Assembly: GCA_028717345.1 (NCBI GenBank)
Contig: JAQUNZ010000008.1
Location: forward strand, 1 to 53,563
Reading direction: 5' to 3'
Source: Candidatus Methanoperedens sp.
GTDB taxonomy: Archaea > Halobacteriota > Methanosarcinia > Methanosarcinales > Methanoperedenaceae
DNA: 53,563 bases
Shown: positions 3,595 to 36,366 of the stretch, in pieces
Layout of the letters: each line of letters begins with the position of its first letter
How positions within the stretch are numbered: the stretch's first letter is position 1
Notes under the pieces: generated by a model
Seen by the model: the letters and a program-made list of their open reading frames with translations, nothing else
What the model was told of the DNA's origin: nothing
The model's database searches: none
Program-made: the position numbers and the translations under genes

Positions 3595-3790
3595 CGTAAA
3601 TCCTCCTTAAAAAACTAAACCAATATTTACAAAGAGAACTTAATCTCTATAAATAGGTTTCCAATTTTTGTTTAGGATTGATGATTCCTCTAGAAATACT
3701 TTTGTTTTTAGACAGTTATGTTCTGCTCTAACTATGACTACCAAACGAGTGGTGTCTTTATCACACTTTGCATATGAAGTGTCATTTGCT

Positions 3791-3848
3791 TGAACCTAAA
3801 GTCAACCGTTTGCACCTTAAGTCGCTCCAAAACGGTACTTTAGATGCA
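3791..3848 (+). repeat. Right array of the 13-bp motif, two direct and one inverted copy
   Basis: TGAACCTAAAGTC (3791) and TGCACCTTAAGTC (3811) are direct copies 20 nt apart. TACTTTAGATGCA (3836-3848) is an inverted copy, reading TGCATCTAAAGTA on the other strand. They match the left array at 2160-2210 on the far side of the island. Just upstream, ACACTT-tgcatatg-AAGTGT (3763-3782) is a hairpin-forming inverted repeat. The rest of 3595-3955 holds no gene, only a T-rich stretch and the flavodoxin promoter. Confidence 0.6.
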
Positions 3849-3868
3849 AAGCTAAAATGGACGAAAGG

Positions 3869-3877
3869 CTTAAATAA
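3869..3877 (+). promoter_or_regulatory. TATA box for the flavodoxin gene
   Basis: CTTAAATAA, within a longer AAATAAAATAAAT run, lies 20 bp right of the motif array and would start transcription near 3897. This is consistent with translation from the ATG at 3956 and also with the two upstream in-frame ATGs. Confidence 0.4.
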
Positions 3878-3955
3878 AATAAATCGTGTGATTAATAATG
3901 ATGATATTGGTTTTTCGAAATGGAAAATCCTCTCTCAAAAGGAATGGGAAAAAAC

Positions 3956-4390
3956 ATGCCAAAAATAATAGTTGTGTATCTCAGTACATCTGGAAACACC
4001 AAAGCGATGGCTGATGCCATTGTGGAAGGCGCAAGATCAAGAAATGTAGAAGCCAGCGCCATGAATTTTCATGAGGCTAAAATGGAAGACCTGAAATCCG
4101 CTGATGCCATTGCCCTTGGCTCATCCACCTTCCATTACAAGATGCTTCCCCCAATGGAAAAATTCCTCGACACTATCGCAAAGGCGAAAGTGAAAGCAAA
4201 AGTCGGTGCAGCGTTTGGCTCTTATGGATGGAGCGGAGAGGCGCCTGTATTGATAGCTGAGCAAATGCGTAAAATTGGTATGAACGTGATAGATCCCGTA
4301 CTGCGTATCCAGTATGCTCCAGCGGAAAAAGATCTTGAGGAATGCAAGAGGCTTGGAAAGGATCTTGCCAATAAGATAAAGCCCAAATAA
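3956..4390 (+). CDS. Flavodoxin-like FMN protein
   Basis: This is a short-chain flavodoxin domain, an electron carrier that binds FMN in the cytosol. The chosen start gives 144 residues beginning MPKIIVVYLSTSGNTKAMA, where STSGNT at residues 10-15 is the FMN phosphate loop directly after the first beta strand. SSTFHYKMLPPMEKF and AFGSYGWSGEAP are the isoalloxazine-contact loops. In-frame ATGs at 3920 and 3944 would add 12 or 4 residues. The 3956 start was preferred because it sits directly at the first strand, although AAAAGGA at about 3938 could also serve 3944. Similar domains form the C-terminus of F420H2 oxidase (FprA), but here the domain stands alone. Confidence 0.88.
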   Translation: MPKIIVVYLSTSGNTKAMADAIVEGARSRNVEASAMNFHEAKMEDLKSADAIALGSSTFHYKMLPPMEKFLDTIAKAKVKAKVGAAFGSYGWSGEAPVLIAEQMRKIGMNVIDPVLRIQYAPAEKDLEECKRLGKDLANKIKPK

Positions 4391-4437
4391 GAATAGTTCC
4401 GCATATCCTCAGATTTGAATAAAATTTTTTAACTTTT

Positions 4438-7400
4438 TTAGGAATAAGTCTTATCAGGGTATGTGTGGCAGTAGTTACAATCATAGGTTTTTCCATAACC
4501 GTACTGGGCTGTGGCATTATTGTATAATCCTGTATCATGGCACGATGTGCAAATAGTGTTATTCACGACATTCTGCGCAGGGGTTCCTGTAATATTATGC
4601 CTGTCCCTGTCATTAATTGGGTCCTTCTGGTAGGAATGGCAGTCCTCACAGGCTTTCCTTGCTGCGATGTTCTTATGTCCTTTCGTATGGCAGTCCTCAC
4701 ATGCCAGTGAACCATGCGCGCTGCTGTTATACATGCTCTGGTTCACGAACTTTTCCGCTGCACCCAATGTGCTCATGTATGAATAAGAGTAGTGGCAGCC
4801 CGTGCATATCCCGGTTCCTGTGCTGACGTTATGCATGAACCCATCAATCCTGGTGCCGTTGGGCAGGAATGCGCCATGACATTCTTTGCATGTTGAGTCG
4901 CTATAATCAGGCGATAGTGTATGGTTGAAATAGCCGTTTTTACTATACGGTGCAAAGGAAGAATGGTTGCTGATCTCAGGCGGAACTGACATGTTCTCTC
5001 CTTGGAAGGTCAGCACCATATTGTTGTAGTTCATCGCACCACTTGTATATCCCTGATAGTGGCAGCCTGAGCACCAGTTGCTGTTGTTGGCGATCGAGGA
5101 ATTAATGATATTAAGACCGCTCCAGTTTGCAGGTCTTCCCAATGCGTTCTCGCTGTGCCTGCTATCACCGTGACAGTAGTTACACATGCTCTGCTGGCTG
5201 GTATTTGTCCAGTAGGTTTTAGTCAGGTTCCATCGGGAACCATTACTGATATCATCGCTGTGATGCATGGATGGTATTCCGGAAGCGTTCGAAAAGTTTG
5301 CTATACCGGTCTGGTGGCATAAGATGCAATTGGCAGCAGTTGAATTGCTGGTATTGAAGATCCCATCAGTCTGCAAGTATTTAACAGGATGAATGTCTTT
5401 GCCATCATTCATGTGGCATTCTTTGCAATTGACAGAATTGTTATGTTTGTTCTTTGTTCCTGTGGTTATACCACTGTAATTTGCTGTGCCACTGCTGCTA
5501 TTTAATCCATGGCAATTCAGGCAGTATGAACTGTTATAGACTGTGCCTGGCATGATCAAACTTCTTCCATGAAGCGTTTCACCTGTACTGTTATGGCACT
5601 GAACAAGACCGCATGAAGGATTGGATGCATTGTATCTGGCGCTGTGGTTGGATATGCTGCTGTTTGACGCATACATGAATGTCCTGTTAAACTCACCCGT
5701 ACCGTTCCTGTGACAGTATAAACAGTATGCATCGCTTCCTCTGGTCTTCCCAAAACTAAGCTGGCTTTTTCCGTAGTGATAAGCGCTGGTACTTCCTCCT
5801 GTAACCGATATGTTGTCGCCCGCAAATGAGCCCGTATCGTTATCATTATTCGGTAACAGCATGCCAGATACATTTTCATGGCATTCGATACACGAAGCAA
5901 TGTCGCTTGTCCTGTTACCCAGAGCCCTGATAGCTGTCCCGTTCTTGAAATGGTTGGAAATGATCGTTGCATTATACGCCCCTGCCCTGCTCCCGTTCGC
6001 AAGATGACAGTCAGTACAGATGAACGGCGTGGTCTTCCTGTCAGGATGCGTGTTACTAGGGACTACCGTTCCAGTTGAATTGTGGCACGCCCAGCAGCTT
6101 GCATTGATTCCGTATCCTGATGCGTTATTGACATTCATATTAGCATGAGTTGACCTGCTGAAGTTGCCGCCGTCGATGTAATGCATGCCTGTGACGTTCT
6201 GGGGACTGCTCGTGTTATGGCATCCAAGACATCCAGGTCCACCTGAACTGCCGCTTCCAAGAGCTGCTTTATGGAACGTGAAACCCCCCACAATAGCGTA
6301 ATTGCCGTGACAAGTGGGGCAGTTGCTGCTTGAGGTGTAAGTAGTGTGGTCTAATCCTCCTCCGGAGGCGTTCTTATTGCTGATGTTCGCCCTGCTACCC
6401 GGCAGTATCCCCCATTTTTGCATATTGGAACTGTTCCTGTGGCAGTAAACGCAGTCAGTGCTGTTGCTCGTGGTGCTCATCAGCCTGCCAGCCGTCCTGT
6501 TCGCGCCATAGTGCGAAACCGATGCATTTACAGGGCTACCCCCGCTAACTCCCATACTCGCATCGTAAGCATCTATCAGGCTGTTATTATGGCAATACGA
6601 ACAGTAAGTGTTTGTGTAGGAGGATGTATTCACATCAGTGTACGGTGAGAGTCCTGAAGGTATGTGGTCAGTAACATTCCCTGCACCGAACAGAGCGAAT
6701 GTATCGTTATGGCAGTCATAGCACTTTCTGGGCTTATTATAAACCGATGTGTTGTGTTCTTCCACAGGCTGGTCGCTCTCGTTCGCCCATGTGCCGTTCT
6801 TGGTACCATGGCATGCCCAGCACGGTCTGTTACTGGCATTGGCAGGTGTGGAAACCGCACCACTATTCAGGAAAGCGTGCATTCCCAAGTTCAATGCTGT
6901 AAAATTGACATTGTCCGCAGAACCTCCTGTATTGTGGCAGTTCGTACAGTTGACCCCACCCGATGTTCCCACAGCTACAGCATGCATGAAACTGGTTATG
7001 TTCTCACTACTGGCAGGCCCCCCATGACAGCTCTTGCACTTTGCATCGTTCTTTGCATAGGAACTGTGGTTGATATAAGCCGCACTGGTGCCTGTGATAT
7101 TGCCATAGGTCGCATTCCCGGTTATCTCAGGCGGTACTGTTCTGTTATCTTCATTGAATGTGCCAACCATTATATAATAATCCGGACTTCCCTGCCAGTG
7201 GCACTGCTGGCACCATGTTAAGGAAGATGAGATCGATCCGTTCACACGATTCCCCCCGCTGAATAGCGAGGGTCTTCCGAGGGCGCTTATTTTGTGCATC
7301 GTTTCGCCATGGCAGTATTTGCACCTCTGGATCTGTGATGTGTTCGTCCAGTATGGTCTTGTCTGGGTCCACTTGCTACCGTTTCTGATATCATCACTGT

Positions 7401-34320: not shown

Positions 34321-34401
34321 TATTTTTAGCTTTTTTTTGGGAAAAGATATTTTTTTTTTGCTGACCGAAATATTTATCAAACATTAAAAACAACATCTAA
34401 A

Positions 34402-34419
34402 GGGGGTTTTTAAACTCCC
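34402..34419. other. Palindromic sequence before the 34442 gene
   Basis: GGGGGTTT-TT-AAACTCCC forms an 8-base inverted repeat with one G-T pair, 9 bp upstream of the AGGAGGT ribosome site. It may be an operator or leader hairpin, or simply hold a TTTTTAAA promoter core. Confidence 0.35.
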
Positions 34420-34441
34420 ATATCTATAGGAGGTATTTTAG

Positions 34442-34795
34442 GTGAAGTATAATGCCAAATTAAATAAGGATCGTCTGGATCGTTTCAGTGTGGATTCGTT
34501 AAAAGAATTAAAGTCATCATTGGAGCGGAGACCGGACTTGAAAATGAAATTAGAAGAAGACCTCAGGGGTACTATTGAGGCTGAAGGGATAGTCATTGAT
34601 GATGCGTTCAAGCAGGAAATACATCAGCAGTGGCAGTCAATGATCAGGCAGGATGTCAGGAAGTTCATGGACAGACAACCAAAGGATAAGAAACCCCTGT
34701 ATTCAATGGTCAGAAAAGGTAAACCACTGAAATTAAAGGTGAAGATCGACCCTGCTACAGGGAAGAGGAGCATCACGCCTGAGGTGAAAAAATGA
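34442..34795 (+). CDS. Small basic protein with leader-peptide-like N-terminal half
   Basis: The 117-residue protein starts at GTG, 8 nt after AGGAGGT. Residues 15-60 read SVDSLKELKSSLERRPDLKM, then KLEEDLRGTIEAEGIVIDDAF. The spacing of 'L..RPDLK..L..D....I...GI.IDD.F' resembles NHLP/Nif11-type leader peptides of RiPP precursors, where it serves as an enzyme recognition helix. There is no GG or GA cleavage site. The C-terminal 50 residues are strongly basic (RKGKPLKLKVKIDPATGKRS) and not Cys/Ser/Thr-rich, so a classical RiPP core is absent. The stop overlaps the next ATG by 4 bp (ATGA). Binding partner or chaperone of the next protein is the simplest inference. Confidence 0.7.
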   Translation: MKYNAKLNKDRLDRFSVDSLKELKSSLERRPDLKMKLEEDLRGTIEAEGIVIDDAFKQEIHQQWQSMIRQDVRKFMDRQPKDKKPLYSMVRKGKPLKLKVKIDPATGKRSITPEVKK

Positions 34796-36366
34796 CGACA
34801 GCAGGCTATGATGTGATGGCTCAGATCAATGAAATCCTGATCAATAAATTCATGAAAATCGGCTTTTGCATTGGGAAGTTCCCCACATTCAGCGGCACAT
34901 ATACACTACCTATCGAGAATGTTCCGGAGAGTCTGCAGGAGTTCATGGATATAGGGTATGAAGTCTCACTTGCAAAGGCACCCACTATTGATTTTACTGC
35001 AGATCTCAGCATGATGATGGATGTAAGAGGTCAGGCAAAGTTCACGGTGCTGGGCGGCATCGAATTCGAACTTGAGGCTGAATTCAGGGTCGCAGTAAAA
35101 CCCACGTTTGACCAGGTTACGCGTATGTTCAGGATAGAATTCGTTGAGGCAGTTATCGAAGATGTTGAACTGAACGATACATACAACCTGCCTGCGAATG
35201 TCCTGGACAAACTCAATGAGATACTGGGCATTGCAATGAAGGAATACCTCACAGATGAGATCACATCAATCGAACTGAGCCCGGTACTGTTCGCCCTTGA
35301 CCTGCCTTACATGCCGCCAGGAGATGAGAATAAACTCAGCATCGGTTTGGGGAATGTGAAGGTATTAAATTCGTCAGTCATGGCTGCTGCTGTTAACCTG
35401 CTGGGTTACAACGGCGGCAATGTCAATGCGATCACGGATTTCACGGGCGGCAATCATATTGGATTAGGTGTGAACGAGAACGGTATGCACAGGGTTTATG
35501 ATTTCTGGTGGGCTCGAACCACACATCCGAAGTCAGTGACCAAGACAGAAACACATGATTTCGATATGCCAAGCATCGTTGATTTTATGGACGAAATCGT
35601 GGACTGGGTTGTAGCTGTTGCAACCCTTGGCCTTGTGGATGTGGATATCGATATTGACAGGGTATGGGCAGAATACGGAGCTAACATCAGGTTTTCGAAA
35701 TTCGATTTTGATCTTAAGCCCGGAAATACGGTTCAGCTTTCAGGCAGTGTCTCGGCGGATGTCTGGCTGAAGGTATATATAAAGTACACGACCACCACTT
35801 CAATCCTATGGGGTGCGGTTGATGTTGACGAAACCACTAACACTGTCACAGTATTTGACGTGCGCCTCAATGGGATCACGATTGATATTGAGAATGCTGA
35901 AGGGACAGTCTCAATAAATGAAGACCATCAATTGATGGTGGATATCACGGATCTTGATATTACGATTCCGTTGCCATGGGAATTGCCTGAGGTGATCCTG
36001 GATTATGTTGTTGACTGGCTGGTTGACCAGATAGTTGTTAACATGCCGCCAATAGTGCTGTTCCCAGCAATTATATCCCAGCAGATCCCTGATACCAGTG
36101 TGACTGTTGATGCCACAGTGGAAAGTCTTGAAATAAATGAAGCTGAGGCGTTGATAACAGCCAATATTGGAACATCCAATATGGGAAGCTATGCGCCCTA
36201 TGTGGCGAACAGGAATCCTGAAAGCATGGAACTGCATAAACGGGAATGCGAATGGGCGCACAGGATAGCTTTCAGGAACAGGGTTTATTACTGTGAACTG
36301 GAGGAGGCGCTTGCTGCCGGTTATGACGGATGTGCATATTGTCTCCCCGAGTACAATACCGGGTAA
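34792..36366 (+). CDS. Beta-rich protein, possibly TULIP/P47-like, with C-terminal Cys motif
   Basis: The 524-residue protein has no signal peptide or membrane segment. It is built of alternating amphipathic strands and long helices (YDVMAQINEILINKFMKIGF, then FSGTYTLPIENV; LPANVLDKLNEILGIAMKEYL; PEVILDYVVDWLVDQIVVNMP). This repeating 'strand sheet plus long amphipathic helix' pattern recalls tubular lipid-binding (TULIP) proteins, including the P47/OrfX group, but I claim resemblance only. The last 50 residues (ESMELHKRECEWAHRI...NRVYYCELEEALAAGYDGCAYCLP) match a common small metal-binding tail, H..C.WA...NRV.F...EEA.A.GY..C..C.P, as in Ada-type zinc motifs. It is translationally coupled to the small protein before it. 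A strong terminator follows. Confidence 0.7.
   Translation: MTTAGYDVMAQINEILINKFMKIGFCIGKFPTFSGTYTLPIENVPESLQEFMDIGYEVSLAKAPTIDFTADLSMMMDVRGQAKFTVLGGIEFELEAEFRVAVKPTFDQVTRMFRIEFVEAVIEDVELNDTYNLPANVLDKLNEILGIAMKEYLTDEITSIELSPVLFALDLPYMPPGDENKLSIGLGNVKVLNSSVMAAAVNLLGYNGGNVNAITDFTGGNHIGLGVNENGMHRVYDFWWARTTHPKSVTKTETHDFDMPSIVDFMDEIVDWVVAVATLGLVDVDIDIDRVWAEYGANIRFSKFDFDLKPGNTVQLSGSVSADVWLKVYIKYTTTTSILWGAVDVDETTNTVTVFDVRLNGITIDIENAEGTVSINEDHQLMVDITDLDITIPLPWELPEVILDYVVDWLVDQIVVNMPPIVLFPAIISQQIPDTSVTVDATVESLEINEAEALITANIGTSNMGSYAPYVANRNPESMELHKRECEWAHRIAFRNRVYYCELEEALAAGYDGCAYCLPEYNTG

What the first reader, a model, noticed from the sequence alone, without database searches (positions are those of the whole stretch)
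34442..36366. Coupled pair: leader-peptide-like small protein plus TULIP/P47-like protein
The first gene has an 'L..RPDLK..L..D......GI.IDD.F' helix like NHLP/Nif11 leaders but a basic tail with no RiPP core. It overlaps by ATGA a 524-aa soluble protein of repeated strands and long amphipathic helices with an Ada-like Cys tail. A leader-type helix beside a lipid-binding-type protein is an arrangement I do not know. It could be a lipid carrier with a dedicated chaperone, or a toxin-like or antagonism module related to the P47/OrfX group. The pair has a strong ribosome site, an upstream palindrome and its own terminator.
Basis: partly seen in the sequence, partly recalled or inferred. Interest (0 to 1): 0.66.

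Follow-up and report, generated by a model that had tools for sequence, protein, structure and literature searches.

The report
Archaeal tandem-TULIP protein with leader-like partner
A methane-metabolising archaeon carries a conserved two-gene unit whose large protein is predicted to have the same lipid-holding fold as human BPI and CETP (a fold I found no published report of in archaea), paired in most lineages with a small helper protein related to the leader part of peptide-antibiotic precursors.

Summary
The pair is real: a 117-aa protein (34442-34795, GTG start) and a 524-aa protein (34792-36366), overlapping by ATGA, with a good ribosome site and a poly-T terminator. Both are under purifying selection. 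The large protein is predicted to be a tandem TULIP protein: AlphaFold2 pLDDT 83; all seven PDB Foldseek hits at E<=1e-3 are LBP, BPI, CETP or P47; its two halves align with each other (E 2e-7). Its tail is an Ada-spaced H/C/C/C module that also ends signal-peptide-less archaeal proteases of six families. The small protein is related to NHLP-clan (Os1348-type) RiPP leaders through its most divergent members (E 7.5e-7), but has no core, no Gly-Gly site and no RiPP enzymes beside it; C39-type exporters are missing from most host genomes. It sits directly upstream of the large gene in 18 archaeal loci from at least two phyla; three genomes carry an unpaired subfamily and lack it. I found no archaeal TULIP in the held literature. 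Best reading: a soluble lipid-binding protein with a dedicated docking or escort partner. A toxin or antagonism role is not supported. The fold is near certain; the function is inferred.

The parts
34364..34378 (+). archaeal BRE/TATA-like promoter element (ACCGAAATATTTATC)
   Evidence: read by eye; not tested statistically
34402..34419 (+). hairpin-forming palindrome in the 5' leader
   Evidence: -11.7 kcal/mol for 34400-34441, z -2.0 (8 of 200 shuffles fold as well); weak
34428..34433 (+). ribosome-binding site AGGAGG, 8 nt before the GTG start
   Evidence: similar sites before the small gene in several homologous loci
34442..34795 (+). small basic partner protein, 117 aa: helical bundle followed by a beta-hairpin
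   Evidence: (pLDDT 78, pTM 0.52)
34493..34672 (+). NHLP-clan (Os1348-type) leader-like helical region, residues 18-77 of the small protein
34730..34783 (+). C-terminal beta-hairpin of the small protein (GKPLKLKVKID..TG), residues 97-114, not part of known leaders
34792..36366 (+). large acidic protein, 524 aa: tandem TULIP domains plus Ada-like tail, no signal peptide
34798..35400 (+). TULIP repeat 1 (residues 3-203)
   Evidence: (aligns with repeat 2, E 2e-7)
35401..35541 (+). most conserved stretch, residues 204-250 (LGY.GG...DFT...E.MHRVYDFWW..T.PK), where the repeats meet
35443..36177 (+). TULIP repeat 2 (residues 218-462)
36190..36363 (+). Ada-like tail (residues 467-524); putative zinc ligands H482, C486, C514, C517
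36375..36418 (+). intrinsic terminator: 11-bp stem, 9-nt loop, poly-T; lies between convergent genes
   Evidence: z -4.0, 0 of 200 shuffles; missed by the consensus scan because its loop is 9 nt

Best explanation
The two genes make a two-part soluble lipid-binding system. The 524-aa protein has two TULIP domains in tandem (BPI/CETP/P47-like architecture) that should enclose a hydrophobic groove for archaeal membrane lipids or another isoprenoid-type molecule. It ends in a small zinc-binding, Ada-like tail that also ends archaeal proteases lacking a signal peptide; I infer that the tail is a shared sorting, docking or stability module. The 117-aa partner is a helical domain of the NHLP-leader clan without a peptide core and with an added long helix and beta-hairpin. 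I infer that it is made just ahead of the TULIP protein by translational coupling and binds it as an escort or docking adaptor, for example by covering the groove or bringing it to a membrane or acceptor, much as NHLP leaders dock on their enzymes. SHOWN: genes, overlap, conservation, co-occurrence, predicted tandem TULIP fold, leader-clan similarity, tail spacing. INFERRED: lipid binding, physical complex, escort role, role of the tail.
For: Fold: pLDDT 83, pTM 0.75. All 7 PDB hits at E<=1e-3 are tandem TULIPs: LBP 1.7e-13 and 4.6e-12, BPI 1.8e-13 and 3.5e-12, CETP 2.7e-11, P47 7e-10 and 1.8e-9; YceB (single TULIP) comes next with TM 0.59 over its length. The halves align with each other, E 2e-7. 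Weak Pfam hits include two TULIP families, DUF1439 and LBP_BPI_CETP. Pairing: small gene immediately upstream in 18 loci, found only next to the large gene, and not found in three genomes with the unpaired subfamily. Distances of the two proteins are correlated, r 0.84. Leader clan: the divergent members score 7.5e-7 and 1.2e-5 against archaeal leaders, above all other real, reversed and shuffled sequences; profile-profile score exceeds all 200 column shuffles. Precedent: structured NHLP leaders work by protein-protein docking (PMC12455567); OrfX3 binds its small partner OrfX1 through a TULIP-like domain (PMC13030710). Strong purifying selection fits an ordinary cellular function.
Against: No complex was predicted and no lipid was shown. 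Full-length TM-scores are low (0.26-0.41) with rmsd 12-16 A, so the arrangement of the domains differs from BPI or is uncertain. The small model is of moderate confidence and matches no known fold. An unpaired subfamily shows that the partner is not universally needed. Charge complementarity fails in Methanocalculus. No neighbouring gene is shared across lineages that would tie the pair to lipid metabolism.
Confidence: 0.5

Rival explanations
1. Antagonism module: the TULIP protein is a BPI- or P47-like membrane-acting effector aimed at other microbes, and the small upstream protein is its cognate immunity or neutralising protein.
For: Patchy distribution with apparent transfer between archaeal phyla; adjacency with the small gene first; BPI-like fold; the best sequence match of the small profile to a solved chain is a bacteriocin immunity protein, at a non-significant E of 0.049; the tail is shared with proteases of secreted types.
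Against: The large protein evolves very slowly (dN/dS 0.04-0.10 in most pairs) with no hypervariable region; the unpaired subfamily has no immunity gene; no signal peptide, exporter or conflict gene cluster nearby.
Confidence: 0.13
2. The pair works inside the cell as a lipid, quinone or cofactor store or shuttle; the tail gives stability or binds nucleic acid, and the small protein only assists translation or folding.
For: No signal peptide on either protein; hosts with titles are mainly methane-metabolising archaea; Ada-like spacing with the first Cys replaced by His argues against methyl transfer but keeps a zinc site.
Against: Known TULIPs mostly act at membranes or outside cells (literature, PMC6791001); no cofactor genes are conserved nearby across lineages.
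Confidence: 0.25
3. The small gene encodes a RiPP precursor and the large protein is its modifying or transport protein.
For: Leader-clan similarity; Methanosuratincola small proteins end in GG-rich tails.
Against: The C-terminus is conserved and mostly basic rather than a variable core; no Gly-Gly site followed by a core; no RiPP enzyme adjacent; C39 peptidase exporters are missing from 14 of 17 pair-bearing genomes, including the window's own 95.9% complete genome.
Confidence: 0.05

Closest known systems
BPI / LBP / CETP family (eukaryotic tandem TULIPs)
   Same: Two TULIP domains in one chain; best Foldseek hits, E 1e-11 to 1e-13
   Different: No detectable sequence similarity by profile search above threshold; no signal peptide; has an Ada-like tail and a small partner; domain arrangement differs or is uncertain (rmsd 12-14 A)
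P47 / OrfX2 / OrfX3 (bacterial TULIPs of orfX-p47 clusters)
   Same: Tandem TULIP architecture (Foldseek E 7e-10 and 1.8e-9); OrfX3 also has a small partner, OrfX1 (PMC13030710)
   Different: No Pfam P47 match; the partner is helical and leader-like, whereas OrfX1 resembles a TULIP domain; no orfX genes nearby; archaeal hosts; Ada-like tail
YceB/DUF1439, DUF4403, DUF2140, DUF2993 (other bacterial TULIPs, PMC6791001)
   Same: TULIP fold; YceB is the next Foldseek hit, and DUF1439 is a sub-threshold Pfam hit
   Different: Those are bacterial proteins, several lipid- or membrane-anchored; only DUF4403 has two domains; none is described there with such a tail or partner
NHLP clan / Os1348-type leaders (TIGR03793, NF038399) and Nif11
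   Same: Helical motif D-P-x-[LF]-x-x-x-[LF]-x-x-[DE]-...-G-[IY]-x-[IL]; residues 18-77 align without gaps with archaeal Os1348-type leaders
   Different: No core peptide, no Gly-Gly site, added long helix and beta-hairpin; no modifying enzyme or C39 exporter; below the curated cut-offs
Ada zinc-binding domain (PF02805)
   Same: Spacing x3, 27, x2 of the four ligands; sub-threshold matches to Ada models at the right place
   Different: First ligand is His instead of the methyl-accepting Cys (own knowledge of Ada); C-terminal position on soluble proteins and proteases

Membership tests
TULIP superfamily | Twisted beta-sheet wrapped on a long helix (TULIP fold) | tested here: met
   AlphaFold2 pLDDT 83, pTM 0.75; 7 of 7 PDB hits at E<=1e-3 are TULIP proteins, probability 1.00. 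Predicted, not solved.
TULIP superfamily | Two related domains in tandem (BPI/P47 class) | tested here: met
   Residues 3-203 align with 218-462 by profile comparison, E 2e-7, probability 94%
TULIP superfamily | Match above threshold to a known TULIP sequence family | tested here: not met
   Only DUF1439 E 0.03 and LBP_BPI_CETP E 0.19 in one member each; no PDB chain at E<=10
TULIP superfamily | Binds lipid in a hydrophobic groove | not testable with these tools
   Needs protein and lipid extraction or liposome assays
P47/OrfX (Clostridium_P47, PF06597) | Pfam P47 profile match | tested here: not met
   No hit at E<=1 in any of 19 members
P47/OrfX (Clostridium_P47, PF06597) | Gene neighbourhood with orfX1-3/p47 or toxin genes | tested here: not met
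   No such genes within about 5-8 kb in the inspected loci of several lineages, by inspection of translated ORFs
NHLP leader (TIGR03793) | Match to the TIGR03793 model | tested here: not met
   No hit in 16 members at E<=10; no hit in the window's own genome
NHLP leader (TIGR03793) | Gly-Gly cleavage motif followed by a variable core | tested here: not met
   Alignment A2: conserved C-terminus, no core
NHLP leader (TIGR03793) | C39 peptidase/ABC exporter in the genome | tested here: not met
   Peptidase_C39 present in only 3 of 17 pair-bearing genomes, absent from G000
NHLP clan in the wide sense (Os1348/NF038399 type) | Homology of the helical leader domain | tested here: met
   Divergent members E 7.5e-7 and 1.2e-5 against an HMM of 9 archaeal leaders (1.1e-4 and 2.9e-4 with only the six over the curated cut-off); reverse search 6.5e-5; hhalign above all 200 shuffles. 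The window's own copy is only linked through its family; NF038399 itself gives sub-threshold hits (E 0.03-0.05).
Nif11 (PF07862) | Pfam Nif11 match | tested here: not met
   Not among hits at E<=10 for 16 members
Ada zinc-binding domain (PF02805) | Four zinc ligands with Ada spacing | tested here: met
   H482-x3-C486-x27-C514-x2-C517, all invariant in 19 homologues
Ada zinc-binding domain (PF02805) | Pfam cut-off and the methyl-acceptor Cys | tested here: not met
   E 0.1 at best in 2 members; first ligand is His

The most novel reading that the evidence does not exclude
Archaea have their own tandem-TULIP lipid-transfer system in which a RiPP-leader-type domain has been turned into a permanent protein partner, and the Ada-like tail is a general sorting or docking tag that also directs a set of signal-peptide-less archaeal proteases (S8, M4, M6, M28, M36, C13 types).
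Probability: 0.25. Interest if true: 0.8.

Novelty: new variant of a known kind. Interest (0 to 1): 0.6.

Why it matters
TULIP lipid carriers are described from eukaryotes and a few bacterial families, and the two specialist papers checked do not mention archaea. A well-conserved archaeal tandem TULIP bears on where this fold arose and on how archaea move their ether lipids through water, about which little is known. The pairing with a leader-clan protein suggests that this domain can be kept as a stable partner without any peptide product. The shared tail gives a testable lead to a sorting or docking route for archaeal proteins without signal peptides.

Tried and rejected
(1) Pfam, NCBIfam and PHROGs scans: no family above cut-off for either protein; the PFam54_60, GerPC and similar hits are judged to be chance helical matches. 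(2) TIGR03793 in the own genome: nothing. (3) A first leader comparison with only three sequences was not significant (score 14.9, null maximum 21.9); with nine leaders, six over the curated cut-off, it was, and the HMM tests agree. (4) Foldseek of the small model: nothing below E 2. (5) Viral and phage collections: no homologue of the large protein; the one good viral structure hit covers 50 columns, which I take to be the tail module. (6) Plasmids: only the tail, on a C13 peptidase, an MBL hydrolase and a thermonuclease. (7) A leader-like gene next to the tail-bearing proteases: none. (8) Conserved neighbours of the pair across lineages: none, only within Methanosuratincola beside corrinoid methyltransferase genes. 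(9) Charge complementarity as evidence for a complex: fails in Methanocalculus, so not relied on. (10) Laying out the whole genome for a proteome-wide null was not available; ORFs of the fetched loci were used instead. (11) No P47 sequences were fetched; the comparison with P47 rests on the structure search and the Pfam scan.

Full report
WHAT IS THERE. The window is contig C8 of a 2.54-Mb, 128-contig genome; the nearest named relatives of the pair are Candidatus Methanoperedens. A small gene (34442-34795, GTG start, 117 aa) and a large gene (34792-36366, ATG start, 524 aa) overlap by ATGA. AGGAGG lies 8 nt before the GTG, and a BRE/TATA-like element at about 34364-34378 was seen by eye. An 11-bp stem with a poly-T run follows the large gene (z -4.0), while the upstream palindrome is only a weak hairpin (z -2.0). 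dN/dS in seven pairs of relatives is 0.10-0.27 (small) and 0.04-0.20 (large), so both encode proteins under selection.

DISTRIBUTION. A scan of 84,980 species genomes, seeded with window peptides and so reaching close relatives only, gave 11 loci. All are archaeal: Methanoperedens, Methanosarcinaceae, Methanosaeta, Methanomicrobiaceae, Methanocalculus, Methanosuratincola and a Bathyarchaeota bin. Alignment-based searches of genomes around the window's and around a Methanosuratincola genome added G274, G542, G251, G269, G603 and G712 with the pair, and G032, G324 and G433 with an unpaired relative. Counting the window, the small gene is directly upstream in 18 loci. In G603 the large gene is split by a frameshift, and in G712 it runs off the contig, but both have the partner. 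G736 (contig edge) is unclear, and G612 (39 codons seen) looks unpaired. A search with the small alignment found it only beside the large gene and not in G032, G324 or G433. Three of the 31 genus-g1 genomes listed carry the pair. The large-protein tree puts 14 paired rows together (100/100), apart from a group holding both the unpaired proteins and the paired G251/G269. Bathyarchaeota and Methanosuratincola sequences at 63-68% identity fall inside the 14-row group. With the patchy presence inside one genus, this suggests transfer between archaeal phyla. Some contigs are short MAG pieces, but Methanosuratincola shows the same neighbourhood in several genomes and the Methanocalculus record is a named strain, not labelled a MAG.

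LARGE PROTEIN. No family database recognises it, and its profile matches no solved chain at E<=10. The AlphaFold2 model from 19 homologues has pLDDT 83 and pTM 0.75. Foldseek against the PDB gives seven hits at E<=1e-3: LBP twice, BPI twice, CETP and P47 twice (1.7e-13 to 1.8e-9, probability 1.00), then YceB at 1.2e-3 with TM 0.59 over YceB. All are TULIP proteins. Full-length TM-scores are low (0.26-0.41, rmsd 12-16 A), which I read as a different or uncertain arrangement of the two domains. Independent of the model, profiles of the two halves align (3-203 with 218-462, E 2e-7, probability 94%). Sub-threshold Pfam hits include two TULIP families. The most conserved stretch is 204-250, with MHRVYDFWW, where the repeats meet.

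TAIL. Residues 467-524 hold H-x3-C-x27-C-x2-C, invariant in 19 homologues. I recall Ada as C-x3-C-x26-C-x2-C with the first Cys the methyl acceptor (own knowledge); here that position is His, so a zinc site without methyl transfer is likely. The same module ends large archaeal proteins of peptidase types S8, M4, M6, M36, M28 and C13 (M6 and M36 are just below Pfam cut-offs). The protease N-termini I inspected show no signal peptide by eye. More distant versions are on a thermonuclease, an MBL hydrolase and a lipoprotein-like protein. None of the tail-bearing proteases inspected has a leader-like gene upstream.

SMALL PROTEIN. It is predicted as a helical bundle ending in a beta-hairpin (pLDDT 78, pTM 0.52), with no structural match. 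TIGR03793 and Nif11 do not match, but NF038399 (Os1348-type NHLP clan) appears sub-threshold in three members. I therefore collected archaeal members of that family, several beside radical-SAM genes by inspection. Profile comparison gives score 28.4 against a maximum of 17.7 in 200 column shuffles and 14.5 for the reversed profile. An HMM of nine such leaders, searched against 521 real ORFs plus their reversed and shuffled copies, ranks the two most divergent small partners (G251, G269) first and second at 7.5e-7 and 1.2e-5. With only the six leaders over the curated cut-off they score 1.1e-4 and 2.9e-4. The reverse search finds a leader at 6.5e-5. The window's own copy is linked through these bridging members, not directly.

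HOW IT LIKELY WORKS. The fold predicts a soluble protein with a hydrophobic groove for a lipid. Overlapping genes, conserved adjacency and correlated divergence (r 0.84, which shared ancestry alone would also give) suggest that the partner acts on the TULIP protein itself. NHLP leaders recognise their enzymes by structured protein-protein docking (PMC12455567), and OrfX3 binds OrfX1 through a TULIP-like domain (PMC13030710). So an escort or docking adaptor is the most economical guess. A RiPP precursor is unlikely: no core, no enzymes nearby, and C39 exporters missing from 14 of 17 pair-bearing genomes. An antagonism module is possible, but slow evolution and the unpaired subfamily argue against it.

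NOVELTY. The two specialist papers checked, on bacterial TULIPs (PMC6791001) and on orfX-p47 clusters (PMC7020563), do not mention archaea, and the literature searches gave no archaeal TULIP. The held library is open-access only, so an existing report may be missed. I rate it a new variant of a known kind: a known fold in a new lineage, with a new partner and tail.

Noticed in passing
L024, L026, L027, L029, L030, L032, L034, L054 (C-termini); L098-L105: A shared C-terminal Ada-like module (Y..N..T.E.H...C....KI...N....l..A...GYNGC.YCLPEYN.G) on archaeal proteases of types S8, M4, M6, M28, M36 and C13 that lack a visible signal peptide; it may be a sorting or docking tag.
   Followed up: partly
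L118:1306-1758, L119:1402-1689, L120:1264-1554 (- strand): Candidate RiPP precursors with NHLP-clan-like leaders beside radical-SAM enzymes in other genomes of the window's genus.
   Followed up: partly
L117:1483-2271 (+): 263-aa protein with an N-terminal leader-like domain (E 7.5e-5) followed by what look like two membrane helices: a second case of the leader-type domain on a non-RiPP protein.
   Followed up: no
L112:3274-4431 with L086/L096 (G603): Large gene split by a frameshift in one genome of the Methanosuratincola phylum while the small gene stays intact; decay or assembly error.
   Followed up: no
L098:3284-3715 and 3769-6183 (Methanomethylovorans plasmid pMETHO01): The ORF upstream of the C13 peptidase shares the motif VFVDLAP..NWAHPC.Y.L with the peptidase's N-terminus, as if a propeptide-like segment were duplicated.
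   Followed up: no
L112, L114, L115, L018 (Methanosuratincola-type loci): The pair sits directly after genes that look like a corrinoid protein and its methyltransferase (by inspection) in all inspected loci of this group.
   Followed up: no
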